Positions 1,596 to 41,011 of a stretch of DNA of 43,663 nucleotides are shown one piece after another. The stretch's first letter is position 1. Each line of letters begins with the position of its first letter. The stretch comes from Thermoproteota archaeon (GTDB taxonomy: Archaea; Thermoproteota; Bathyarchaeia; RBG-16-48-13; GCA-020355125): the NCBI GenBank assembly GCA_030837285.1, contig JAUPKU010000079.1, forward strand, positions 1-43,663. Direction: 5' to 3'. Below the pieces are notes generated by a model. It did not search any database, was not told where the DNA came from, and worked only from the letters and a program-made list of their open reading frames with translations. Position numbers and translations under genes: made by a program.

Positions 1596-2294
1596 TTAGA
1601 TCTTTGATAGAATACCCGAGTATTTCTCCATCCTCATAGTTTTTCCCTCCGGCTGTACGAGCCACGTCATCCAGCAGAGCTCCACAGGCTGATACCCGCA
1701 AAGCAAAGCGATCTCCTCAGTCTTCTTCACAAACTCGATGTCGCTATTCACCTGCTCTAAACCAGCTTCTCTTAGAATCGAGTTTATCACTCTCTTAACA
1801 ATCTTGTCAGGCATCACAGTATTAACACCACCCATCATCCTAAGATACTGAAATGTGATCAGCCCGACTCCCCTGATCCTCCCGATAGGATTATCCATCC
1901 AGCCCTCAAGGCTGGTATTACGTGCCCAGCTTCGCAGGGTTCTCCTATCATCTCCCTCCATGGTTGAAAGGTAAGACGCCACTTCCTTAGCTACCATCCA
2001 TGATCGCTCATTCTTCCACACCATCTTTAATTTACCTGTGTCTGCTTGTGCAAGGTCTTCTAGATTCTTTATCGTTCCATTCTCCATATACTTTTTACTG
2101 AATTCCTCAACCTTCGGAACAACCGCCGTGAAGTAGTTCAAGCCGATAGAGTCGAAAGCCGCATCGACAACCATTAAGACGACGCTTCCACCCCACCTCT
2201 CAGTTCTAAGGCACCTCTCGCAAAAAACCTCTATCCCAGAAACCTTCTCCATATATTCTTCAACAATCTTCTTGAGCAAAGACATCTCATCCAC
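1596..2294 (-). CDS. HhH-GPD (endonuclease III-like) family protein
   Basis: A 232-residue helical protein. Residues 139-170 read as the helix-hairpin-helix plus following helix of the HhH-GPD DNA glycosylase fold: RIRGVGLITFQYLRMMGG, then MPDKIVKRVI. The Asp of PDKIVKR (D163) occupies the place of the catalytic Asp found in endonuclease III and AlkA relatives. The Lys of bifunctional glycosylases (GVGRKTA in EndoIII) is Ile here, so AP-lyase activity is unlikely. There is no C-terminal four-cysteine Fe-S loop; two Cys occur near the N-terminus (FCERC). A DNA-binding or repair role is inferred from the fold, and the substrate is unknown. An AlkD remnant lies about 1 kb to the right. Confidence 0.6.
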   Translation of the reverse strand: MDEMSLLKKIVEEYMEKVSGIEVFCERCLRTERWGGSVVLMVVDAAFDSIGLNYFTAVVPKVEEFSKKYMENGTIKNLEDLAQADTGKLKMVWKNERSWMVAKEVASYLSTMEGDDRRTLRSWARNTSLEGWMDNPIGRIRGVGLITFQYLRMMGGVNTVMPDKIVKRVINSILREAGLEQVNSDIEFVKKTEEIALLCGYQPVELCWMTWLVQPEGKTMRMEKYSGILSKI

Positions 2295-2446
2295 TTTCCT
2301 CTACATCAGAATATTTGGCTCATTAAAACTTTGAACAATGGAAAAAACTTCTACATCACCAGTTCTCGCATCTCTCATAGATCTCGGAGATCCGTTTAAT
2401 GGTCAAATTATCTTCTAATCTCAGCAGCCTGTTTATGACTTTTTCC

Positions 2447-3073
2447 TCAAACCACATCATTCTTAACCTCCACGATACCATCTAAAACAGTGTTGAGTAA
2501 GACCTTTTTAATGTGATTCCAGTTGAAGTCAACTCCCATCGTCGACCAGTGAAGAGTCAGTCCATCGATAGTTACAAAGAGAAGAGCTGATAGAGTCGCT
2601 GAGTCAAGGCTTTTCCTAAATTCTCCCTTTAGCACGCCTTCTTGAAGAATCTTCTTGATGAACCCTTCAATAGTCTTGTAGCGTTTGTTAAATCCTTGAG
2701 CTAGAGGTTTCTTGCGAGACGCTTCTATAAAGAACTCTATGTTACTTCTCTGGAATTCTTTTGGACAACAATAAGTATTGGTGAAGATAAGTTCACCAAC
2801 TCTCCTTAGTTTTTCGATTGTAGAGAGGTTCTCGGAGAAGGTGAGGTTTAGCTGGTTCAGGACTAACTCGGTCTGCCTTTTATGTATTGCTAGTATTAAC
2901 TGTTCTTTATTCCTGAAGTGTCCATAAATGGCACCTTTGCTCAAACCGCTCTTCTTTACGATTTCGTCCATAGAAGTCTCTTTGAAACCCTTCTTAGAGA
3001 AAAGAGACTGGGCTGCGTCCAGAATCTTTTTGTCAGTGATTATTTTCTGCTTCTCGGTCACGCTTGGAGACAT
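2447..3073 (-). CDS. TetR/AcrR-family transcriptional regulator
   Basis: The N-terminal third is a textbook TetR helix-turn-helix: KILDAAQSLFSKKGFKETSM, followed by DEIVKKSGLSKGAIYGHFRN and then KEQLILAI. The remaining roughly 140 residues form a helical ligand-binding and dimerisation domain that differs between family members, so the effector cannot be predicted. I chose the ATG at 3073; the open frame extends three codons further to a TTG at 3082 without a better ribosome site. A TATA-like run (3105-3112, minus strand) sits about 35 bases upstream of the ATG. No obvious target operon adjoins it. TetR proteins usually repress their own gene and a neighbour. Confidence 0.88.
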   Translation of the reverse strand: MSPSVTEKQKIITDKKILDAAQSLFSKKGFKETSMDEIVKKSGLSKGAIYGHFRNKEQLILAIHKRQTELVLNQLNLTFSENLSTIEKLRRVGELIFTNTYCCPKEFQRSNIEFFIEASRKKPLAQGFNKRYKTIEGFIKKILQEGVLKGEFRKSLDSATLSALLFVTIDGLTLHWSTMGVDFNWNHIKKVLLNTVLDGIVEVKNDVV

Positions 3074-3216
3074 ATTTCTCAATTTATAAAACCGACTGGG
3101 CAGTCTTATAACTCCTTTAGTTAATCAAATTTACAACAATAATGACTTGTAATACAAAATAGGCAAACCCACAACTAAAATGAGATTTCTATCTCATCAA
3201 ATGTCTAAACGAGTTT

Positions 3217-3408
3217 TCATCTCAGCTTATTTTTAACGACCTTGTCTGTCAGCTCCCGTAAAGCATCCGTCGCAATCCACCTTGCACTCTTTGAGTCAAT
3301 TTTTAGAATCTCATTCGCCGTCCTTATCGCTTCCTCCTGCAATTTTTTACTGCGTTTTCCAATCTGTCTAAGAGCCCAGTTGACTGCCTTTCTCACAAAG
3401 TTTCTCTC
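3217..3408 (-). pseudogene. C-terminal remnant of an AlkD-like DNA alkylation repair protein
   Basis: Translating the minus strand gives 63 residues that look like the end of the DNA alkylation repair (AlkD) family: ERNFVRKAVNWALRQIGKRS, then AIRTANEILKIDSKSARWIA, then TDALREL. A TAG at 3409-3411 lies directly in frame before this segment. Upstream of it the same frame no longer resembles the family, which normally has about 220-240 residues of HEAT-like helices. There is no start codon at the beginning of the segment. I read this as the surviving 3' end of a decayed gene. The family match is from memory of its conserved C-terminal motif. Confidence 0.65.
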
Positions 3409-4366
3409 CTAAAACCAATATTCTTCACCACTAATTACGGTATAAAAACCTATCTTAACAAGCGTGACTATATTTTCACAACAACAAATGAATTCAAATC
3501 AATATGATCTAGAATCCCAAAAATATAGATTTCAAATATAGATTCACAGTGTGGAAATGAAGGGGGAAATGCTTTCATCTTGACAGTCATATGATATTAT
3601 CTAATCAACAGGTTATTTGCTCTTTCCTCTCCTGTTTCCCAAGCAAATCAGAAAGGAATATCCAGCAAGTTTTCAATAGTCCAATGATTACCTGCTATCC
3701 ATGCAATCCCCTCTGCAAATTAGAGTTAATTCAACATATTGCGTGGAGAACTTTCAAAAGATCATTGAAATCTATTCGTCATCCTTGTGTCACTATGATA
3801 AGAATCCTCTCCAGATTACTCGTTTAGAACCTAGTAGGCTAGTCCGAACATGAGCTTGACCGAGTAAGTTCACTTTATGAGGATTGGCCGGATTTTTAAA
3901 GCAGAGAATTTCCATTCAAAACAGATAGCTATCAAGAAATGATTCATAGTCTGCATGGTAGTGGAGATGAGAATTGAAGAATGATTTGGGGGTGCCCTCA
4001 TGACTCGACCATGCCACCCGTGATAGCATTGTTTTAGCTCCCTCTGTGTTCCTTTAGAGATGAGACATGCATGGGATTTATGCATGGAAAGTCTGTTGAC
4101 ATGAGGGCATAACGCCCAATATGCTATTCTGCAGTATAGGATTTTAATACATTTATGAATCTAGAATTCACAAGTAGGTAGTGATTTTTTGTCAAATTGG
4201 ATTAAACAACGTAATTCAATGATAATTCGAGTGTGACACCTTCTTCAACTTCTTTCCTAAATATTTTTAGCATTTAAACAGGTTTATAGGATGGTTGTTA
4301 AGAAAGAGAGGATGAAACATTCTGATAGACAACAAGAGTCAAAAAAAGTTGAAAATGTCAGATTGG
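3409..4366. other. Long intergenic region with one inverted repeat
   Basis: Almost 1 kb without a believable gene. Open frames at 3591-3827 (plus) and 3870-4085 (minus) have random-looking composition and no ribosome site. The only structure seen is a perfect 10-base inverted repeat, TGCCCTCATG at 3993-4002 and CATGAGGGCA at 4100-4109, enclosing 97 bases. Together with the AlkD remnant on one side and the broken flavodoxin gene beyond the next gene, the region looks like decaying sequence. Confidence 0.5.
3993..4109. repeat. 10-bp inverted repeat pair, spacer 97 bp
   Basis: The arms TGCCCTCATG (3993-4002) and CATGAGGGCA (4100-4109) are exact reverse complements. The enclosed 97 bases also contain two ATGCAT words. 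This could be a stem of an unrecognised RNA or simply chance; there is no known family match. Confidence 0.35.
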
Positions 4367-5062
4367 CTACTTTTTGTACTTGCATTTGAATCTTGTATGA
4401 ACGTGGGTGGAATCGCAGAAAGGTTTATTCTTTGATTTTCCGCAGCGGCAGATAGTAATCCGGTTTCTAGTTTCATATTGCTTACCATCATGAGACACCA
4501 GTTCCACCCCGCCCTCCAACCTTATTGGACCACTGATTCCCTCTATGGGATCTTCCACAAGGCTTATCGCCTTTTCGAGAAGGGGTTCTATTGGTTTCTG
4601 GCTTTGTTTGTCAATCGCGACTAGACGACCTGACGCGCAGTTGCATGCTTCCTCAACTATTATTTTTCTGATCTTGGGGTCACCTGATTTTTCAAGAAGA
4701 TTCCATATACCTCCAGCACCATGGCAGAAACGTGATGCAGCGCAAAGGCTCTGAACATCCGCTAAGCTGATCCCCAGTGCTTCTTCAATCTCCGCTTGTT
4801 CAAAATACCTTTTTAGACTTGCCGTCTCTGCTTCATCGAAGCCTTTTTTATCGTGGGTCCCATCGCAGAAGGGTTTACTCCTTGACTTGCCGCAGCGGCA
4901 AAGGGTGTATATCCTCTGGTTAGGGTATCTCCTAATAACACTCCATCCACTAGCTTCGCCAGCACTGTTTCTAATAATCTCTTTGACATTCAAAGGGAGA
5001 TTTCCATAGACAGTGTAAGGACCATTCATGTTAACTGTCACTCTCGCTTTATCTCTTAGCAT
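4367..5062 (-). CDS. Double CDGSH iron-sulfur domain protein
   Basis: This protein (231 residues) carries two CDGSH-type [2Fe-2S] motifs. CRCGKSRSKPFCDGTH is at 55-70 and CRCGKSKNKPFCDSTH at 205-220; each supplies the C-x-C-x8-C plus His ligand set. In the second motif Ser replaces the Gly of the consensus. The middle segment (about 85-160) contains several further Cys (LCAASRFCHG, EEACNCASGRLVAID). It resembles the linker found in large prokaryotic CDGSH proteins, where it has been described as an additional metal-binding region. A role in electron transfer or cluster handling is inferred. The gene is single, with no operon partner; the flavodoxin gene, now broken, lies divergently to its right and could once have been a redox partner. 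Confidence 0.85.
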   Translation of the reverse strand: MLRDKARVTVNMNGPYTVYGNLPLNVKEIIRNSAGEASGWSVIRRYPNQRIYTLCRCGKSRSKPFCDGTHDKKGFDEAETASLKRYFEQAEIEEALGISLADVQSLCAASRFCHGAGGIWNLLEKSGDPKIRKIIVEEACNCASGRLVAIDKQSQKPIEPLLEKAISLVEDPIEGISGPIRLEGGVELVSHDGKQYETRNRITICRCGKSKNKPFCDSTHVHTRFKCKYKK

Positions 5063-5201
5063 ATCCTTCTCAATTCTGTTCTATAGCATCTGTCATTGAG
5101 CGATGGAAACGTGCTTATAAAACCTTACTGTAATGGCGAAAAAATATTAACATACAATTCCAAGCAAGATTTAACGTGTTATGAATGCTGGAAGATGAAA
5201 G

Positions 5202-5639
5202 ATGATGAAGATTCTTGTTGTACACGATGGAAATAATACGGGAATCATGGCAAATGCTATCGCTGACGAAGTTATGTTCCTGAAGGAAACGCAGGTGATT
5301 CTAAAGAGCGTTGACAAAGTGAAGACCGAAGAGTTGGCAGAAGCTGATGCGATCATTTTAGGGTCTCCAACAATCAACAGCAACATCGGCATAAAGATGA
5401 AAGCACTTATAAAGAGACTTGGTCTACAATTCAAAGGTAAAATCGGATCTGCCTTTGGCTCATACGGTTGGAGTGTTGAAGTAACAGGCTCCTAATGGAC
5501 GAACTAAGGGCGCTTCAACATGGATCTTCACTATCCCTTTATGCGTGCAAAGCGCCAACCAAGAGAATTCAATCTAGAAGAATGCAAGAAATGGGGGCTT
5601 TCTATAGCAATGGAAGCTGCAAAAAGAAAAAATACTTAA
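5202..5639 (+). pseudogene. Flavodoxin gene interrupted by two in-frame stop codons
   Basis: The first 97 codons encode a flavodoxin start: MKILVVHDGNNTGIMANAIA is the FMN phosphate loop, followed by ADAIILGSPT and GSYGWSVEV, the second FMN-contact loop. A TAA at 5493-5495 and another at 5505-5507 then close the frame. In the same frame after the second stop, coding resumes with FNMDLHYPFMRAKRQPREF and EECKKWGLSIAMEAAKRK, and ends at TAA 5637-5639. That is the usual C-terminal part of this flavodoxin family. Read through, the gene would be about 145 residues, the normal size. So there is no frameshift, only two nonsense codons in a slightly degraded helix. A sequencing error would have to produce both stops, so decay is more likely. 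Confidence 0.8.
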
Positions 5640-5754
5640 CTAGCACAAGCTGATGACACTTTTGTAAGTGAAAATTGAAACAGACACAAGCATTTCACAC
5701 TAATAGCATGCCTTTTTTATTGCTCAGGCCGTTCCTTTTTTCGCTCAAACTAGT

Positions 5755-7221
5755 TCAGTCCATTCCATGCTTCCCACTAAAGGTTCTTCTGTAGAATTTT
5801 CTCAGATGCTGCAAAGCATGAGCTAGAAAGCGTTTCTCTTCGGCGCAGGCTCTTTTTAAAGCTGATTCACGTGAGACTAACGCTTTTCCAAGTTCAGAAA
5901 GCTCTTTCTTAGGAGAATACTTTGTGTATATTGGCACACCAACAAGAAGCAAAGCCAAGCCTAACCCAATCTGGATGAAGCTACACTGTGTTATGAGATA
6001 TAAGGAGAAGATTATTCCAAGGCTTGGAATGAGTGAGTCTCCTCTGAAGTTGAACCGTGCTTTAGCACCCTTTCTCCTAAGAAAGAATACAGAGGCGCTC
6101 GTCGCCGCGTATGCGAAGGCAAGAAAGAACACTGAAGTAGATATGAGTAAACTGAGATTGCCTACTACTGCTGCTATAAGTGCTGTAACCGCTTGGATAA
6201 TGATGCCCAGATACGGCGTCTTGTACCTCGGATGAATCTTAGCGAAGACACTTGGAAATAGACCATCAGCAGCAAGTGCGTATCCAAGCTTGGAAGTCCC
6301 TATCATCCCTGACTCATCGGAACCAGAGACTGAGATGAGAGCTCCAACACCTACTATGAGTGAGCCAGCCTGCGCTAAAGCTGGTACTGAGCTTAGAATC
6401 ATATTTGTCCCTGTAGCTAAAGGAGCACTATCCAGTGCCAGCAAACTTGAGGGTCTCACCCCGAAGAGCACGATATTCGTTGTCAAGTAGAAGATGGTTA
6501 CAATCGAAATTCCAAGTATAATTGCCTTTGGAATAGTCCTACCTGGATCCCTTATCTCATCAGCAGGGATTGTTGAGATTTCAAAACCCGTGTAAGCCCA
6601 GAATATTAGGACAAGTGCTGACCCAAAATTGTCAAAACCTAAGGGAGAGAAAGGTGTGAGATTCGCTTTTACTAAAACCAAATTCGAGATGATGTATACT
6701 AAGCCTATCACGACAAAGAAGACAAGCGGAATAAGCTTTACTACTGTGAGTACATCATTTGTTTTACCAGCAGCTCTGATACCACCAATGTTTGTAACAA
6801 TAAGGAAAACAACGAACAATACCATCACAGTGGTCTGAGAGATCCAATTTAGATCTGGTAGGAAGAACATAAGGTACCGCGTGAAAGCCACTGGGAAGAT
6901 AGCGAGAGATATCCATTCGGCGAGCCAGAGAGACCACCCAACAATGAAGCCTGCGAAGGGACCCCAAGCCACATAAGCATAGGAGTATGGCCCGCCGACT
7001 CTGGGAACCATAGCCGAGCACTGGACAAAACACAGCCCAACAATTATGGCTATTAATCCAGCAACCACCCATGCAACCAGTGAGAAGGGTCCTAAAAGGC
7101 CTGCACCAAAGGCTGATGCAACATATATATCCGCTCCTATTATCGCACCGACAACAAGATTCGTTACATCAAAAAGCGTAAGCTTCTCCTTGAACCCAGC
7201 TTCAGACATCAAAGTCACCAA
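5755..7221 (-). CDS. APC-superfamily amino acid permease
   Basis: A 488-residue membrane protein with about 12 hydrophobic segments. The N-terminal signature of the amino acid-polyamine-organocation family is clear: LTLFDVTNLVVGAIIGADIY, with the unwound-helix glycines. PRVGGPYSYAYVAWGPFAGF follows in the position of TM3, and FWAYTGFEISTIPADEIRDP in that of TM6. It should import an amino acid by proton or sodium coupling, or by exchange; the substrate cannot be told from sequence. The C-terminal tail of about 50 residues is charged and cytosolic. The gene ends the leftward strand of a convergent pair with the broken flavodoxin, and the MoaD-like gene lies upstream on the same strand, 75 bases away. 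Confidence 0.88.
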   Translation of the reverse strand: MVTLMSEAGFKEKLTLFDVTNLVVGAIIGADIYVASAFGAGLLGPFSLVAWVVAGLIAIIVGLCFVQCSAMVPRVGGPYSYAYVAWGPFAGFIVGWSLWLAEWISLAIFPVAFTRYLMFFLPDLNWISQTTVMVLFVVFLIVTNIGGIRAAGKTNDVLTVVKLIPLVFFVVIGLVYIISNLVLVKANLTPFSPLGFDNFGSALVLIFWAYTGFEISTIPADEIRDPGRTIPKAIILGISIVTIFYLTTNIVLFGVRPSSLLALDSAPLATGTNMILSSVPALAQAGSLIVGVGALISVSGSDESGMIGTSKLGYALAADGLFPSVFAKIHPRYKTPYLGIIIQAVTALIAAVVGNLSLLISTSVFFLAFAYAATSASVFFLRRKGAKARFNFRGDSLIPSLGIIFSLYLITQCSFIQIGLGLALLLVGVPIYTKYSPKKELSELGKALVSRESALKRACAEEKRFLAHALQHLRKFYRRTFSGKHGMD

Positions 7222-7296
7222 GAAACAAATGCTGTATAGAAAGAACTCTTTCCTAAAAGATGAACCAACTAGAATTATAAGATGCTTACCTCTATC

Positions 7297-7545
7297 TCAG
7301 CCGCCTCCCAAAGGAGGCATAAGAATTATCCTTTCAATCTTTGGGTTAAAACTGAATATCTGCTTTCTACCCTTAGGCTCATCGCTGAAGGCCATCCAGC
7401 CATCAGCCAAGTACTCGCGGAACTTCTCCTCGGCATACGCGACTCCCTGACCATTATCTAAATTCCAGGAGACCTCCATCTCATCAGGTAAAGTCCACTC
7501 TTTGAGCAGATGCCTCATAACCTTCACGGTCATCATTTTGCCCAT
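7297..7545 (-). CDS. Small beta-grasp-like (MoaD/ubiquitin-type) protein with GGG tail
   Basis: The 82-residue product ends in IERIILMPPLGGG. A diglycine tail after a hydrophobic final strand is the hallmark of MoaD, ThiS and the small archaeal ubiquitin-like modifiers, whose C-terminal glycine is adenylated by an E1-like enzyme. The size fits and the predicted strands fit a beta-grasp fold, although overall similarity to canonical MoaD is weak. It lies divergently from the ferredoxin-AOR operon. A role as sulfur carrier for the pterin of the tungsten enzyme is therefore attractive, and protein modification is the alternative. No E1/MoeB or MoaE gene is visible in the window. Confidence 0.65.
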   Translation of the reverse strand: MGKMMTVKVMRHLLKEWTLPDEMEVSWNLDNGQGVAYAEEKFREYLADGWMAFSDEPKGRKQIFSFNPKIERIILMPPLGGG

Positions 7546-7646
7546 AGAACATCAGTCCCCTTTCAAATAGGTGAAACATATATCTTAGGTACTGTATTAA
7601 CTTTTCAAATCAAGAAAAAGAGGAGCAAAAGAAAGAGAAAAAACGG

Positions 7647-8183
7647 ATGTGTTTTTCTATGAAGAGTCCAATGCAAATATACGTTGATCACAATCTTCCT
7701 GGATGCAGTGGATGTCGAATCTGCGAGAAGATGTGTGCCTTGAATCATGAGAAGAAGTATAATCCAGCTTACTCAAGGATCAAAGTGTTCCAATTCTATC
7801 CAGGACCAATAGATGTTCCTATCGTCTGCCAATACTGCGAAGACCGCCCATGCGTTGCTGCGTGTCCTACAGGCGCTTTAATATATGACACTAACAACTT
7901 CCAGATGAAAGTTGACGAAAATAATTGCACAGGCTGCAGAGCCTGCAACCAAGCCTGCACCAATAGTGGAAGAGGCGGATGCATCACATTTAACCCAAGT
8001 AGTGGTATGGCTCAGATCTGTGACTTATGCGGTGGTAACCCAAAGTGCGCGAAGTACTGTCCATCAGATACTCTTCACTTCCTGGCAATGTCAAGGTTCT
8101 CCAAAAGATTAGCGAAGCCCGCTAAACTTATAGCTAGCAGAATAGCAGACCAGTTTTACCCAGTTAAGAAGGAAATCGACTAA
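7647..8183 (+). CDS. Four-cluster ferredoxin-type electron-transfer subunit of AOR
   Basis: The protein (178 residues) has four cysteine groups, each suited to a [4Fe-4S] cluster: CSGCRICEKMC, CQYCEDRPCVAAC, CTGCRACNQAC and CDLCGGNPKCAKYC. This spacing matches the HycB/DmsB-like polyferredoxins encoded next to aldehyde ferredoxin oxidoreductases. It ends at 8183, and the AOR gene starts 19 bases later with a strong ribosome site, so the two are co-transcribed and probably form a complex or transfer electrons between them. Three in-frame Met codons lie within the first ten codons. The one at 7662 (MKSPMQIYVDHN) is as plausible as 7647. There is no membrane segment or signal peptide. Confidence 0.9.
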   Translation: MCFSMKSPMQIYVDHNLPGCSGCRICEKMCALNHEKKYNPAYSRIKVFQFYPGPIDVPIVCQYCEDRPCVAACPTGALIYDTNNFQMKVDENNCTGCRACNQACTNSGRGGCITFNPSSGMAQICDLCGGNPKCAKYCPSDTLHFLAMSRFSKRLAKPAKLIASRIADQFYPVKKEID

Positions 8184-8189
8184 AGGAGG
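8184..8189 (+). promoter_or_regulatory. Shine-Dalgarno site of the AOR gene
   Basis: AGGAGG begins immediately after the ferredoxin stop codon (TAA 8181-8183) and lies 13 bases before the AOR ATG. It is the strongest ribosome-binding site in the window and supports translation from a shared transcript. Confidence 0.8.
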
Positions 8190-8202
8190 ATGAAAAACAA
8201 AA

Positions 8203-10038
8203 ATGATTGGTGGATATGCTGGTAAAATACTTGATATTGACCTTACCAATAAGACGGTAAAGAAGACACCGCTTGACATGGACGATGCTAAGCGGTTCCT
8301 AGGCGCCAGAGGAATGATGACGAAACTCCTTTGGGATCGAATGAAGCCTGGAACAACAGCCTTTAGTCCGGACAACTTTATAATGTTCTTCACCGGACCT
8401 TTAACAGGAGTTTTGAGCGGAAATAGGACGATCATTCGATTCAAATCGCCATTAACGGCGACTTCAACGGGACTAAATCTGATGGGACACACCGCAACAG
8501 GCGGCAACTGGGCTGCGGAACTCAAATACGCTGGCTTCGACGGCATCGCCGTTACAGGAAAAGCTGAAGAACCCGTCTACATCTACGTCAAAGATGGAGA
8601 AGCAGAGATCAGAAATGCCACCCACCTCTGGGGGCACTCAATCTTCGAGACTGAAGTGAAACTCAAAGAGGAAATAGATCCTCTCGTTCGCGTCCTACAG
8701 ATAGGCCCAGCTGGCGAGAATCTCATCCGTTACGCTTGTATTAACCAAGAGTACTTTTATTCGGCATCTCGTTGTGGAGGCGGCGCTATCATGGGCTCAA
8801 AGAAACTCAAGGCAATCGCTGTCAGAGGCACTTTAGATGTTCCAGTAAACGATGTTGATAACCTCATCTCCTTAGAAGGTGAAGTCTACGGGAAGCTGCG
8901 AAATGACCCAACCGAACTGTACAGTAGAAGAAGGTGGGGATCAACCACAGCCAACATCTCCTCAAGCGATTCTTCAACAGGCCCGCTGAAGAACTGGAAA
9001 GAAGCGTACTGGGCAGACGACGTTGAAGTAGGCGGACCACTTCAATGGGAGTCCAGATGTCGAGTTAAGAATAGAGGATGCTTCGGATGCCCAACACCAT
9101 GCAACCAGCTTGGCATTATAAGAGAAGGACCTTGGGCGGGAACATTTGACATTCCAGATTATGATTCCACAGATCTTCTCCATCCGAACTGTATGATCAC
9201 CGACCCCAACGGCGTGTATGCTCTGAGTAGTTTCTTAGACTCTATGGGTTTAGATTCTGTCTCAACTGGAAACACTCTCTCCTGGGCTATGGAATGCTAC
9301 GAGAAGGGTTTATTGACGAAGAAAGACTTGGATGGGATAGAATTGACTTGGGGAAACGTTCCGGCCATGTTCGAGATGGTGCGGAAGATTATCCGACGGG
9401 AGGGAATAGGTGACCTACTAGCTAATGGCGTCCGTATAGCCTCAGAGAAAGTTGGCAAAGACTCAGATAAGTTTGCTATGCATTGTAAAGGCGTTGAATG
9501 GGGTGTTGGTGGAGCTGGAAACAATCGTGATCAGCGAGAGACATTCTGCTACGTCATGTCTGACCGAGGTGGAGTCCACCTTTACGGTCCAACTATTGAC
9601 GGACAAAACAACTTCGCAGTCGCAGACTCGCTGACGGTATGTATAAGAAACATGAGAGCCCTCGACGTCGTAACGGTGGAGAAGGCACTTAAGGCCGCAA
9701 CTGGGCTGAGCTACTTCAGCAGCCAAGGGGATTTGGATCATTTTGCCCACCGCATAATCATATTTGAGAGAGCCTTGAATGTCAGAGAAGGTCTAGTTCC
9801 AGACAGAGACGATATTCTACCGGAGCGAGTTTTCACAGAACCATTAACTCTAGGCCCAAGAGCTGGAACTGTAGCTGCGATCTACGACAGAAAGAAATTC
9901 CAAGAAGACAAACAGACATGGTACAAAGCCAGAGGCTGTGACGAACATGGCATTCCCACTAAGAAGACACTTAGAGACCTAGACTTAGCCTTCGCAATAC
10001 CTCTGTTAGAGAAGACAGCTGACTTAGAAGAATCCTAA
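8203..10038 (+). CDS. Aldehyde ferredoxin oxidoreductase family protein
   Basis: The length (611 residues) is typical for tungsten-containing AORs, which oxidise aldehydes to carboxylic acids and reduce ferredoxin. The N-terminal domain has the family start GGYAGKILDIDLTNKTV. It continues with FLGARGMMTKLLWDR and FFTGPLTGVLSGNR, the pterin-binding region. The [4Fe-4S] ligands are C293, C296 and C300 (CFGCPTPC) and the distal C480 (ADSLTVC). The subfamily, and hence the aldehyde (formaldehyde, glyceraldehyde-3-phosphate, aromatic or other), cannot be fixed by eye. The paired polyferredoxin recalls multi-subunit AORs such as the BAM- or benzoyl-type and WOR-type enzymes. Codon 1 is set by the AGGAGG 13 bases upstream. 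Confidence 0.93.
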   Translation: MIGGYAGKILDIDLTNKTVKKTPLDMDDAKRFLGARGMMTKLLWDRMKPGTTAFSPDNFIMFFTGPLTGVLSGNRTIIRFKSPLTATSTGLNLMGHTATGGNWAAELKYAGFDGIAVTGKAEEPVYIYVKDGEAEIRNATHLWGHSIFETEVKLKEEIDPLVRVLQIGPAGENLIRYACINQEYFYSASRCGGGAIMGSKKLKAIAVRGTLDVPVNDVDNLISLEGEVYGKLRNDPTELYSRRRWGSTTANISSSDSSTGPLKNWKEAYWADDVEVGGPLQWESRCRVKNRGCFGCPTPCNQLGIIREGPWAGTFDIPDYDSTDLLHPNCMITDPNGVYALSSFLDSMGLDSVSTGNTLSWAMECYEKGLLTKKDLDGIELTWGNVPAMFEMVRKIIRREGIGDLLANGVRIASEKVGKDSDKFAMHCKGVEWGVGGAGNNRDQRETFCYVMSDRGGVHLYGPTIDGQNNFAVADSLTVCIRNMRALDVVTVEKALKAATGLSYFSSQGDLDHFAHRIIIFERALNVREGLVPDRDDILPERVFTEPLTLGPRAGTVAAIYDRKKFQEDKQTWYKARGCDEHGIPTKKTLRDLDLAFAIPLLEKTADLEES

Positions 10039-38206: not shown

Positions 38207-38283
38207 GCCCAGGTAGCTCAGACTGGGAGAGCGTTCGGCTGAAGACCGAATTGTCGAGAGTTCAAATCTCTCCCTGGGCACCA
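38207..38283 (+). tRNA. tRNA-Phe (anticodon GAA), CCA encoded
   Basis: The cloverleaf is complete. The acceptor stem is GCCCAGG (38207-38213) with CCTGGGC (38273-38279), and the D stem is GCTC/GAGC. The anticodon stem TTCGG/CCGAA carries the loop CTGAAGA (GAA at the anticodon position), and the T arm is GAGAG-TTCAAAT-CTCTC. The discriminator is A (38280) and CCA follows (38281-38283). The gene has no intron. The variable loop is the short class I type. Its 3' end is copied twice downstream, marking it as an integration target. Confidence 0.96.
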
Positions 38284-38560
38284 AATATTCCGAGTAATCT
38301 GCTGTCTTATTTTTAATAGGCAAACTGAAAACAGCATTATCTTGTTTTAGGCTTATGTTACTATATTCTATAACGCCGTTACTGTTTTTAGTAACAGAAA
38401 GTATAACTTCATCTACCCACCGTCTTGTCTTGGCATTCTTTGATAAAACGTCTGAGTCTTCTCTGATTATCATTAGTTTCTTAAATCCTTCAGAGCAGGA
38501 CTCGCGATATCGAATCAGAACGGCTATACTCAGCATTTTGAGAAACCTTTAGGTAACATC

Positions 38561-38683
38561 TTAGCCGGACAGCCTTCCTATACCTAGTGGGGCAGGCTTA
38601 ATCTCATTATACTCCTCCACGGATCGCTCCACAGGTGCTTTCAAGATCACTCTCCTCGGGATAGCGTGTGCCGCGAGACTCTT
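38561..38683 (-). other. Short protein-like fragment, possible relic
   Basis: The minus strand between a TAG (38684-38686) and a TAA (38561-38563) has 40 sense codons: KSLAAHAIPRRVILKAPVER, then SVEEYNEIKPAPLGIGRLSG. It is GC-rich relative to its surroundings and reads like a real protein tail. It has no start codon in frame after the stop, and I do not recognise the family. It sits between the tRNA and the first shared repeat relic. Confidence 0.25.
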
Positions 38684-38824
38684 CTACGCCTTATCCTAAT
38701 TTAATTGATCGGAATGAAGCTATTCCTGGGATCCAACATCTATGGCAGTTTATCCATTGGCCTCAATTGTCATAAATAACTAGCTTGATCTATAGATGAT
38801 CCAAAAACTAGCAATATTACAGCA

Positions 38825-38861
38825 ATTCTAGAACAGTCTTTATAGTAGTTTGATGAATCTA
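38825..38861 (+). repeat. Diverged copy A of the cassette-boundary repeat
   Basis: TTATAGTAGTTTGATGAATC (and three more bases) matches the corresponding part of copy C at 20 of 23 positions. The tRNA-tail portion seen in copies B and C is absent here. Confidence 0.45.
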
Positions 38862-38879
38862 AGCACGTGGGCTTTGTTT

Positions 38880-39614
38880 TCATAATGAAAGTTCTTCAGT
38901 TGGGTATATTGTAATCCCATGTTTTCTATCAATTTCGAGATAATAGGGTTTGTCTCGGGATATTTCAGGGGATTTCGAAATCCTTATGTATCTTTTATAC
39001 CCAATTTTGTTGAGCTCTATGACCATGTCAGCTATTTGAATATAAGATTTCTTAAACCTCGAATCGTGGGTTTCTACGTTGGCGATGGCTATGCCAATGC
39101 ACTGTGATGCTCTGGTTATGGACTTCATCTCCTTTAGGAAACCTAGTGCAGCTTCCTCATCTAGGAGTGTGATGAGCGGGTCTAAGGAGTCTACTATGAT
39201 TAGGAGATCTTTTCCCGCCATTTTCCGGAGACAAAAGTCATTACCTTCTTTCAGAAGTTCATTGAAGTCAAAGATTTGTTTCATCTGTTCTGAAAACGGA
39301 ATGTCTGGAAAGTTATTAGTTACATCAGTTGCATGTAAAAATATATCTACAAAGTGGAATTTGCCTTCCTGCTCATATCTTGTTATGTCCCAGCCTTGAT
39401 ATCTCATGTAGTCTCGCACGTCCATTGCGCTATCGTCCACGGAATAATAGAGTACATCGAACCCTTTCCTTAGGAGGTTCCAACTGATTTGTCGAGCCAG
39501 TAGAGATTTGCCGCTGCCCATCTCACCGACCAGGCTGATTGCTGCTGGTCTGGGGAGACCACCGTCAACGATTTCGTCTAGACCACCTATGTCAGTGGTA
39601 ACTCGAGTAAACAA
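38880..39614 (-). CDS. KaiC-like single-domain RecA-fold ATPase (paralog 4)
   Basis: A 244-residue KaiC-fold protein with an intact P-loop, GEMGSGKS (30-37). Its Walker B region is DLLIIVDSLDPLITLLDEEA, and LYYSVDDSAMDVRDYMRYQG follows the first strand after Walker A. It is closest to paralog 3 by its shared layout (GG-L-x-x-PAA, RQISWNLL, VLYYSV, W-D-I-T), although paralog 3 has lost its P-loop. The start is TTG 39614; the ribosome site is weak. It lies alone inside the repeat-bounded unit next to tRNA-Phe, away from paralogs 1-3, which suggests acquisition or duplication by the integrating element. Confidence 0.88.
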   Translation of the reverse strand: MFTRVTTDIGGLDEIVDGGLPRPAAISLVGEMGSGKSLLARQISWNLLRKGFDVLYYSVDDSAMDVRDYMRYQGWDITRYEQEGKFHFVDIFLHATDVTNNFPDIPFSEQMKQIFDFNELLKEGNDFCLRKMAGKDLLIIVDSLDPLITLLDEEAALGFLKEMKSITRASQCIGIAIANVETHDSRFKKSYIQIADMVIELNKIGYKRYIRISKSPEISRDKPYYLEIDRKHGITIYPTEELSL

Positions 39615-39760
39615 AACTACTACCTGTTCAACATTTAAATTCTAACCTAAAATAAGCTATTTAGAGAGAATATATCAATTTTATGAATCTCAACTCTATT
39701 TCACTACGTAGTGCGCGCGAAAAGTAATGAATTGGCATGGGCTATGCAATATTATATTAA

Positions 39761-39833
39761 GTTCAGAGCAGTTTTTGTAGTAATTTGACAAATTTAAACG
39801 GAAACTTTCAGCTCTCCTTGGGCACCAAATATT
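39761..39833 (+). repeat. Copy B of the cassette-boundary repeat with tRNA-Phe 3' end
   Basis: The left part (39761-39810, containing TAGTAATTTGACAAATTTAA) matches copy C, with TAATTTGA-AAATTTAA shared. The right part (39812-39833, CTCTCCTTGGGCACCAAAT plus ATT) copies the tRNA-Phe end with one mismatch, including the CCA and six further bases. It would act as an attachment site if the unit were excised. Confidence 0.7.
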
Positions 39834-40031
39834 TACGCTTATTTTAAGCCAATAGTTGAAAAATATAGCTTTTTAATTTTGTGTCTAGATTTAAATTTAT
39901 CATAACAATTGGATTTTATCAAAGCTCTAAGAATGTCCATGACGAATTATAATCGTTTCTCACTGCTTTGTAGAACGTTGTATCTTCATTTTCCCATAAC
40001 AATTCAGCCTTAAATTGATATATGATTGCAA

Positions 40032-40250
40032 TCACGAATAGTATTTGAGGAATTCTTCCCTTGAAATTTCACAATCCCTTAGAATCCTGTTGAGAAGGCC
40101 AACTTGGATCTCGCCCACTGGAACAGTTATGTATGATTTATCACGACAAAGCGTAACATGACTACCTCTCTGTCTGACCTTTGAAAAGCCAAACTGATTA
40201 CAGAGAATTTTAGTAAGCGTTGACCCGGGAATAGGTCTTAGCCGAGGCAA
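40032..40250 (-). CDS. hicA: HicA-type mRNA interferase toxin
   Basis: The 72-residue product has the HicA double-stranded-RNA-binding-like fold pattern: FGFSKVRQRGSHVTLCRDKS with the invariant GSH catalytic His, then YITVPVGEIQVGLLNRILRD, then SREEFLKY. HicA toxins cleave mRNA. The start is TTG 40250 behind GAGGAAG, which lies in the 13-base gap after the HicB stop. In many systems HicA comes first; here the antitoxin is upstream. Confidence 0.85.
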   Translation of the reverse strand: MPRLRPIPGSTLTKILCNQFGFSKVRQRGSHVTLCRDKSYITVPVGEIQVGLLNRILRDCEISREEFLKYYS

Positions 40251-40263
40251 ACTTCCTCAACCG

Positions 40264-40473
40264 TTACGCAGATACTTCAATTTCTTTCAAGGCCTTCTCC
40301 CTTAGAACAGCGAGGTGAAGGTCTAAGGCAGCTTCAAAATTCTTCTTAGCTTCATCCAGAGTTTTACCTATGCAATAAATACCTAACGCAGAACATGCAA
40401 TTCCGAAGCTTCCATCTTTCTCTTTGATGACTTCAGTAGATATGTCCTTAAGCTTCAATCTCAACACAATCAC
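40264..40473 (-). CDS. hicB: HicB-type antitoxin
   Basis: The 69-residue protein is the short HicB type with a partial RNase H-like fold: DGSFGIACSALGIYCIGKTL, then DEAKKNFEAALDLHLAVLRE. This matches antitoxins that block HicA. There is no C-terminal DNA-binding extension, so any autoregulation must use the core domain or another factor. The start is GTG at 40473. Two direct repeats, AATGTA-CAC-AATGTA (40481-40495), sit just upstream of the start and could be a binding site. The pair occupies the repeat-bounded unit B-C. Confidence 0.82.
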   Translation of the reverse strand: MIVLRLKLKDISTEVIKEKDGSFGIACSALGIYCIGKTLDEAKKNFEAALDLHLAVLREKALKEIEVSA

Positions 40474-41011
40474 TATTTAGAATGTACACAATGTAAATTA
40501 ATTAAACATATTGATATCATACAAGGGGAGCCCAGGCTCTTAAAGATGGAAGAAATTAATCCATGGGATTATATTCGTATTCTGAAACGCAAAAAAATGC
40601 GTTGAATAAGCATCTAAACCTGTACAGTGTTAGGGTTACTTTACAGCTACTGTTAGTGGCTTTAATTAGGCAATATCAACGCAATTCAGAAGCAATATTT
40701 ATAGTAATTTGATAAATTTAAACTTGAACTTTTAGCTCTCCCTGGGCACCACCAAATTCTCCTTGGACATTTTCCTATTTCCGTTTCCTAAGCATTCTTG
40801 TTTCATCAATCTTGCAGACATACTCAAATCCAGCTTCAATCAAAGGTTTCGCTTCTTTGACTATTGTAGCAACTTTACAGATATATTCCTCGTTTCCTTC
40901 TCGGAAATTTGGCTTTTTCGAGATCAATGTATATCATTATATTTACAATGCTTCTGTGTCCGAGGAAAGTACGCTCTATAGTATCCATTTTATCATTTTA
41001 ACGCACGCAAT
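40474..41011. other. Non-coding region containing cassette-boundary copy C
   Basis: Besides the repeat copy at 40684-40756, this region has no recognisable gene. Two overlapping open frames at 40763-41015 are random in composition and are rejected. The HicAB promoter must lie at its left end (40474-40530). Confidence 0.4.
40684..40756 (+). repeat. Copy C of the cassette-boundary repeat with tRNA-Phe 3' end
   Basis: ATTCAGAAGC then TTATAGTAATTTGATAAATT and TTTAGCTCTCCCTGGGCACC. The last 15 bases (40736-40750) are identical to the tRNA-Phe end. Three extra bases (ACC) follow before the AAAT that continues the match. This is the far boundary of the HicAB unit. Confidence 0.7.

What the first reader, a model, noticed from the sequence alone, without database searches (positions are those of the whole stretch)
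38207..40756. tRNA-Phe 3' end duplicated twice, bounding KaiC-like and HicAB units of near-equal length
The tRNA-Phe tail (38268-38289) recurs at 39812-39833 (one mismatch in 22) and as an exact 15-base core at 40736-40750. Each copy is preceded by the same approximately 50-base AT-rich block, and a relic of that block lies at 38825-38861. The blocks are 935 and 924 bases apart. This looks like successive insertions at one tRNA, one carrying a KaiC-like ATPase and one a HicAB pair, with no integrase in sight. Mobile units lacking an integrase yet of similar size would be unusual.
Basis: partly seen in the sequence, partly recalled or inferred. Interest (0 to 1): 0.75.

Follow-up and report, generated by a model that had tools for sequence, protein, structure and literature searches.

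The report
Integrase-less tRNA-tail gene cassettes in Bathyarchaeia
Behind several tRNA genes of an uncultured archaeon lie rows of small gene packages, each ending in the same DNA docking sequence plus a copy of the tRNA's tail and mostly without an enzyme to move themselves, which suggests a borrowed-enzyme, cassette-like way of swapping genes.

Summary
The repeats are real and extend far beyond the window. The tRNA-Phe tail recurs at 39812 and 40736, each time behind a conserved ~80-nt arm (P). A sequence-only model of P plus tail finds 15 strong sites on 9 contigs of this genome; six were not used to build the model. The same arms pair with the tails of tRNA-Phe, tRNA-Trp and probably initiator tRNA-Met. 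An inverted partner arm (P') follows the tail at many left ends, including the HicAB unit and the Trp and Met tRNA genes. Units between sites carry unrelated cargo (KaiC-like ATPase, HicAB, nitroreductase, AOR operon, flavodiiron protein, histidine kinase) and are 0.9-4.2 kb, so the near-equal lengths are coincidence. Distant Bathyarchaeia have related cassettes at tRNA-Trp, with one base-level empty site in a congener. 'No integrase in sight' is wrong: 40778-40967 is a degraded tyrosine-integrase C-terminus beside the last tail copy, and other sites abut integrase relics. Best reading: CIME-like, integrase-less integrative cassettes stacked at tRNA 3' ends by a tyrosine integrase acting in trans. 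Placement by site-specific recombination is well supported; ongoing mobility and the enzyme's identity are not shown. New variant of a known kind.

The parts
38207..38283 (+). tRNA-Phe (GAA); its 3' end 38268-38283 is the attachment core
   Evidence: ARAGORN and Rfam RF00005
38284..38862 (.). unit A: decayed cassette ending in a relic right arm; no recognisable left arm
   Evidence: R1 match at 38803-38862, 31.9 bits; no P' motif after the tRNA
38803..38862 (+). relic right arm (P) that has lost its tRNA-tail core
38863..39827 (.). unit B: KaiC-like cassette (left arm lost, right arm and core present)
   Evidence: bounded by relic arm and P+core
38880..39614 (-). KaiC-like ATPase, 244 aa
   Evidence: Pfam PF06745, E 4.8e-29
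39730..39811 (+). right arm P of unit B
   Evidence: R1 77.5 bits
39812..39827 (+). attachment core (tRNA-Phe tail, 15/16)
39828..40751 (.). unit C: complete HicAB cassette with both arms, 924 bp
   Evidence: P' and P arms both present
39889..39907 (-). left arm site P' (GATAAATTTAAA, inverted relative to P, 62 nt from the core)
   Evidence: (I6, I10)
40032..40250 (-). HicA toxin, 72 aa
   Evidence: Pfam PF07927, E 5.7e-10
40264..40473 (-). HicB-like antitoxin, 69 aa
   Evidence: weak Pfam PF15919/PF21748 matches below cut-off and adjacency to HicA
40655..40735 (+). right arm P of unit C
   Evidence: R1 78.7 bits
40736..40751 (+). attachment core (tRNA-Phe tail, 16/16)
40778..40967 (-). unit D: degraded C-terminus of a tyrosine integrase, its stop 24 nt from the core
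   Evidence: search with the C27 integrase, 64% over 47 aa, E 1.1e-15; 68% over 44 aa plus 67% over 21 aa

Best explanation
The region is an array of small integrative cassettes stacked at the 3' end of tRNA-Phe. Each cassette is a piece of DNA whose attP (in the circular form) would consist of a tRNA-tail core flanked by two arms: P, about 16 nt from the core, and P', about 60-115 nt from it, carrying inverted copies of one short motif (GATAAATTTAAA in this genome). Recombination between attP and the tRNA tail inserts the cassette, regenerates the tRNA 3' end and leaves P plus a tail copy at the far end; repeating this stacks cassettes. Most cassettes encode no integrase, so a tyrosine integrase supplied in trans, by integrase-bearing elements that use the same cores, probably inserted them. 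Shown: tail copies, arms, several tRNA targets, varied cargo, tandem order, an empty site in related genomes, integrase relics next to cores. Inferred: excision, circular form, action in trans, present activity, and which integrase does it.
For: 15 strong P+tail sites on 9 contigs plus a relic, always same-oriented where tandem. Cores match Phe (three sites, 15-16/16, next best tRNA 10-11), Trp (six sites, 13-16/16) and initiator-Met (one clear site, 14/16) tails out of 31 tails compared. An inverted P' motif follows seven left ends with at most 1 mismatch, including the Trp and Met tRNA genes themselves. Arms co-vary: this genome uses GATAAATTTAAA at both ends, distant family f15 uses TGTAAAATTTAAA at both ends, so one protein probably reads both. 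G127 holds a 1,165-bp cassette at tRNA-Trp where congener G129 is empty, collinear through the tail junction. Other genomes hold different cargo at the same tRNA. Integrase sequence directly abuts cores at C27, C107, C108 and in the window.
Against: No reads were available, so no excised circle or junction was seen. No intact integrase element bearing the P arm at its own far end was found; 30 integrase loci of the relatives show no arm within about 1.5 kb. No empty site exists for the window itself: HflX orthologues in the order have no tRNA nearby. Within the order the arms occur in this one genome only. Units A and B in the window lack a recognisable left arm.
Confidence: 0.63

Rival explanations
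1. Passive remnants: full-size integrative elements (viruses or plasmids with integrase) inserted one after another at these tRNAs and then lost their integrase and backbone by deletion, leaving arms and one or a few genes. The array is a graveyard, not a mobile cassette pool.
For: Integrase relics stand next to cores in the window, C107 and C108; units A and B have lost an arm; related integrases occur in IMG/VR viral contigs; tandem decayed elements are the classical CIME origin (PMC5704250).
Against: Complete cassettes with both arms and one gene or operon recur with unrelated cargo. Deletion would have to stop just inside both arms each time. Minimal cassettes of 0.7-1.2 kb with both arms occur in distant genera at tRNA-Trp with different cargo.
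Confidence: 0.29
2. The block is a dispersed repeat or promoter-like sequence (a MITE, or the promoter of an integrase gene) that happens to sit before tRNA-tail fragments.
For: The block is AT-rich, contains a TATA-like stretch about 26 nt before an ATG in the Trp-type copies, and recurs around the genome.
Against: At 10 of the 15 strong sites the next 16 nt match one tRNA tail of the genome clearly best, and two more are weakly Met-like; the tail differs by locus. P' lies inverted on the other side, and the cargo in the window is on the opposite strand. A promoter role for the integrase in the circular form is compatible with the best explanation.
Confidence: 0.04
3. Assembly or binning artefact: short contigs from other strains or chimeric joins create the apparent arrays.
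For: The genome is an assembly of 281 contigs with 4% estimated contamination; most sites are on contigs of 4-20 kb.
Against: The window contig is 43.7 kb with the array inside it; G126, G127, G145, G147 and G150 show the same anatomy on contigs of 22-455 kb.
Confidence: 0.04

Closest known systems
Cis-mobilizable elements (CIMEs), defined in Streptococcus ICE work; 15 integration-module-free ssrA islands in Dehalococcoides (PMC5704250, PMC3146451)
   Same: attL/attR retained, no integration module, tandem accretion at the 3' end of an RNA gene, cargo-rich
   Different: Here units are often single genes, the same arms serve several tRNA genes, hosts are archaea, and the nearby integrase relics are tyrosine recombinases rather than the serine recombinases of Dehalococcoides
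Additive flexible genomic islands with repeats of the tRNA-Lys tail in 'Ca. Methylopumilus' (PMC10872708)
   Same: Repeated 20-nt tRNA tail, variable units (from 330 bp), accessory genes including a nitroreductase
   Different: No conserved arms or multi-tRNA use are described in the passages read; bacterial host
Archaeal tRNA-targeting integrative elements, including SSV-type 'suicidal' integrases (PMC8371274, PMC6563490)
   Same: tRNA 3' end as attB, integrase gene abutting the core (C107, C108, C232), tandem integrations known
   Different: Those elements carry an integrase; the cassettes here do not, and have arm-type repeats around the core
Integrons, also reported in Archaea (PMC9668308)
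   Same: Array of small gene cassettes moved by an integrase encoded elsewhere (logic only)
   Different: Boundaries here are tRNA tails with flanking arms; IntI and attC were not searched for

Membership tests
Cis-mobilizable element (CIME) | Both attL and attR retained | tested here: met
   Unit C of the window and units on C28, C107, C108 (left arm weak), C242, G126, G127 and G145 have P' and P+core ends; units A and B of the window have only one end
Cis-mobilizable element (CIME) | No integration or transfer genes of its own | tested here: met
   Proteins of the complete units tested match only cargo families; integrase relics are in other units
Cis-mobilizable element (CIME) | Mobilised together with or by a related element | not testable with these tools
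   No reads and no experiment
tRNA-targeting integrative element | Duplicated tRNA 3' end at both boundaries | tested here: met
tRNA-targeting integrative element | Empty site in a related genome | tested here: met
   Met for the tRNA-Trp cassette of G127 against G129; not available for the window itself
SSV-type (suicidal) integrase element | attP inside the integrase gene, gene split by integration | tested here: inconclusive
   C232 integrase frame runs on from the tRNA-Leu tail; C107 and C108 relics start at the core; the int(N) half was not found and PF16795 was not tested
Integron cassette array | IntI integrase with attC sites | not tested
   Not searched for; the boundaries seen are tRNA tails

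The most novel reading that the evidence does not exclude
Bathyarchaeia run a dedicated cassette system: single genes or operons carried on minimal att-flanked units that use tRNA tails as landing sites, with arms recognised by a trans-acting tyrosine integrase that serves several tRNA genes, a functional analogue of integrons that arose independently.
Probability: 0.27. Interest if true: 0.82.

Novelty: new variant of a known kind. Interest (0 to 1): 0.6.

Why it matters
It shows how an abundant uncultured archaeal class may gain and swap single genes (toxin-antitoxin pairs, redox enzymes, sensors), and gives a searchable sequence signature for it. The lineage-specific co-variation of two arms around variable cores also predicts a lambda-like, two-contact integrase in archaea and separates arm recognition from core (tRNA) choice, which can be tested directly.

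Tried and rejected
Order-wide search with R1 found nothing outside this genome. HflX synteny gave no empty tRNA-Phe site. Arms near 30 integrase loci of relatives: none. Arms in viral contigs: two pattern hits, both judged chance (they lie in apparent coding sequence; R2 gives 14 bits for one and nothing for the other), and no arm on the stretches held of three viral contigs that encode relatives of the integrase. Weak R2 hits in G054, G057, G059, G097, G115, G122, G180, G196, G208, G220 and the second G098 hit have no convincing tail and are not counted; G073, G156, G175, G177, G098 (first hit), G244 and G248 look like arm plus tail but no matching tRNA was tested, so they are only suggestive. 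The MITE, replication-slippage and equal-length ideas were dropped because the tail changes by locus while the arms stay, and unit lengths vary.

Full report
OBSERVATION. The tRNA-Phe gene is 38207-38283. Its tail recurs at 39812-39833 with one mismatch in 22 and as an exact 16-nt core at 40736-40751; the AT-rich block recurs at 38811, 39746 and 40670, spaced 935 and 924. All coordinates in the finding hold. The conserved stretch before the tail is about 80 nt.

NOT A LOCAL ODDITY. A DNA search of the host genome found the same block plus Phe tail on contig C27 and the same block in front of a different tRNA tail on C28. A scan for the most conserved part found further same-oriented copies on C28 (three in all) and two on C108. 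A sequence-only model (R1) of nine P-plus-tail sequences then found 15 strong sites on nine contigs plus the relic in the window; six of them (two on C107, one on C142, two on C242, one on C179) were not in the model and have E-values from 8.8e-18 to 2.6e-10.

WHICH TAILS. Comparing each core with 31 tRNA tails of the genome assigns three sites to Phe (15-16 of 16, next best 10-11), six to Trp (13-16) and one clearly to an initiator-type tRNA-Met on C263 (14); two C108 sites are weakly Met-like and three are unassigned. The tRNA-Trp on C218 contains an intron; it is read from the sequence because ARAGORN in its default mode and Rfam did not call it. The label initiator-Met rests on my reading of the 5' end AGCGGGGTGGGG. 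Thus the arm stays while the tail changes.

THE SECOND ARM. After the core, seven left ends carry GATAAATTTAAA, inverted, 62-114 nt from the core, with at most one mismatch: the HicAB unit, both the Trp and Met tRNA genes, C28 (two), C107 and C242; C108 has a weaker one. Joined as a circle, a cassette would have P, core and P' with inverted arm sites, like the attP of a lambda-type tyrosine-integrase element. In family f15 both arms read TGTAAAATTTAAA (exact on both sides in G126, G127 and G145; the left arm of G147 is weaker). Matched change at both ends in two lineages is best explained by one protein reading both.

CARGO. Window: KaiC-like ATPase (PF06745, E 4.8e-29) and HicAB (HicA PF07927, E 5.7e-10; HicB weak). 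C28: cupin and metallo-beta-lactamase-fold protein in one unit; FMN oxidoreductase, ferredoxin and aldehyde ferredoxin oxidoreductase in the next. C107: nitroreductase. C108: flavodiiron-type protein. C242: PAS histidine kinase.

INTEGRASE. A search with the C27 integrase finds 40778-40918 (-) at 64% over 47 aa, E 1.1e-15, extended to 40967 across a frameshift. It is a C-terminal relic whose stop lies 24 nt beyond the last core. On C27 the related integrase (PF00589) likewise ends next to a Phe core, with its zinc-ribbon N-terminal part in another frame (inference). On C107 and C108 the sequence right after a core encodes the N-terminal part of an integrase, in relic form (for C107 by my reading of the frame); the C108 relic is 29% identical to the C232 integrase over 294 aa. 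C232 has an intact frame directly after tRNA-Leu. So integrase-bearing elements have used these cores, but which enzyme moves the cassettes is open.

OTHER GENOMES. R1 over 257 genomes of the class found matches in three more; R2, built from 19 sites, reached 23 genomes at E 0.01, many of them chance. The convincing set is G126, G127, G145, G147 and G150, all at an intron-containing tRNA-Trp. Three of them correspond, by pattern match and contig length, to public records of Candidatus Bathyarchaeota (JAGTQI010000011.1, JAGTQX010000003.1, JAGTQG010000008.1); the window's genome is in the same class. G126 holds a DUF2283 plus PBECR2-like pair, G127 a winged-helix protein plus a 94-aa protein, G145 and G147 a decayed unit, and G150 a site followed at once by sequence like another left end, as in a tandem.

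EMPTY SITE. G129, of the same genus as G127, has the same tRNA running straight into the downstream ParB-like gene. Joining the two flanks of the 1,165-bp unit of G127 in silico gives a sequence collinear with G129 through the tail: GGCCCCACCACC[A/G]GTAATG. For the window no such comparison was possible.

MECHANISM. Site-specific recombination at tRNA tails, repeated in tandem, is well supported. That a tyrosine integrase did it follows from the neighbouring relics and from the known biology of tRNA-targeting elements (PMC8371274). That cassettes move in trans today is inferred. The main rival is that they are deletion remnants of larger elements; complete two-armed small units in distant genera speak against decay alone, but units A, B and D of the window are clearly decayed, so both processes are at work.

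KNOWN PARALLELS. Integrase-free islands between repeated RNA-gene tails are known: 15 of the ssrA islands of Dehalococcoides (PMC3146451), CIMEs (PMC5704250), tRNA-Lys-tail islands of Methylopumilus (PMC10872708). I found no description of such cassettes with shared arms at several tRNAs in archaea in the searches made, which cover an open-access library only. Hence: new variant of a known kind.

LIMITS. Cassette contigs other than the window are short and could in part come from close strains.

Noticed in passing
L009 (G000:C27) 1540-1994: Beyond the integrase-side Phe core the sequence continues into the lid and winged-helix part of an Orc1/Cdc6 gene (PF22703 E 1.8e-10 on a hand-joined frame); it looks like an integration into cdc6 at a chance match to the core, or a mobile element carrying cdc6.
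   Followed up: partly
L041 (G000:C69) 1683-9788: An approximately 8-kb element bounded by exact 22-nt copies of the tRNA-Leu(GAG) tail, with an integrase relic near its right end and a different, non-matching arm.
   Followed up: partly
L208 (IMGVR_UViG_3300032069_000027): A viral contig encodes an intact zinc-ribbon tyrosine integrase, 51% identical to the C27 one, directly followed by a whole tRNA-Ser gene at the contig end.
   Followed up: partly
L152/L161 (G126:C4:419523-420853): Two different tyrosine-integrase genes flank one tRNA-Phe gene, one on each side.
   Followed up: no
L070 (G126) 10092 and L131 (G127) 7324: The cassette-supplied tRNA-Trp end reads GGCCCCACAT, so insertion removes the genomically encoded CCA that the empty site has.
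   Followed up: partly
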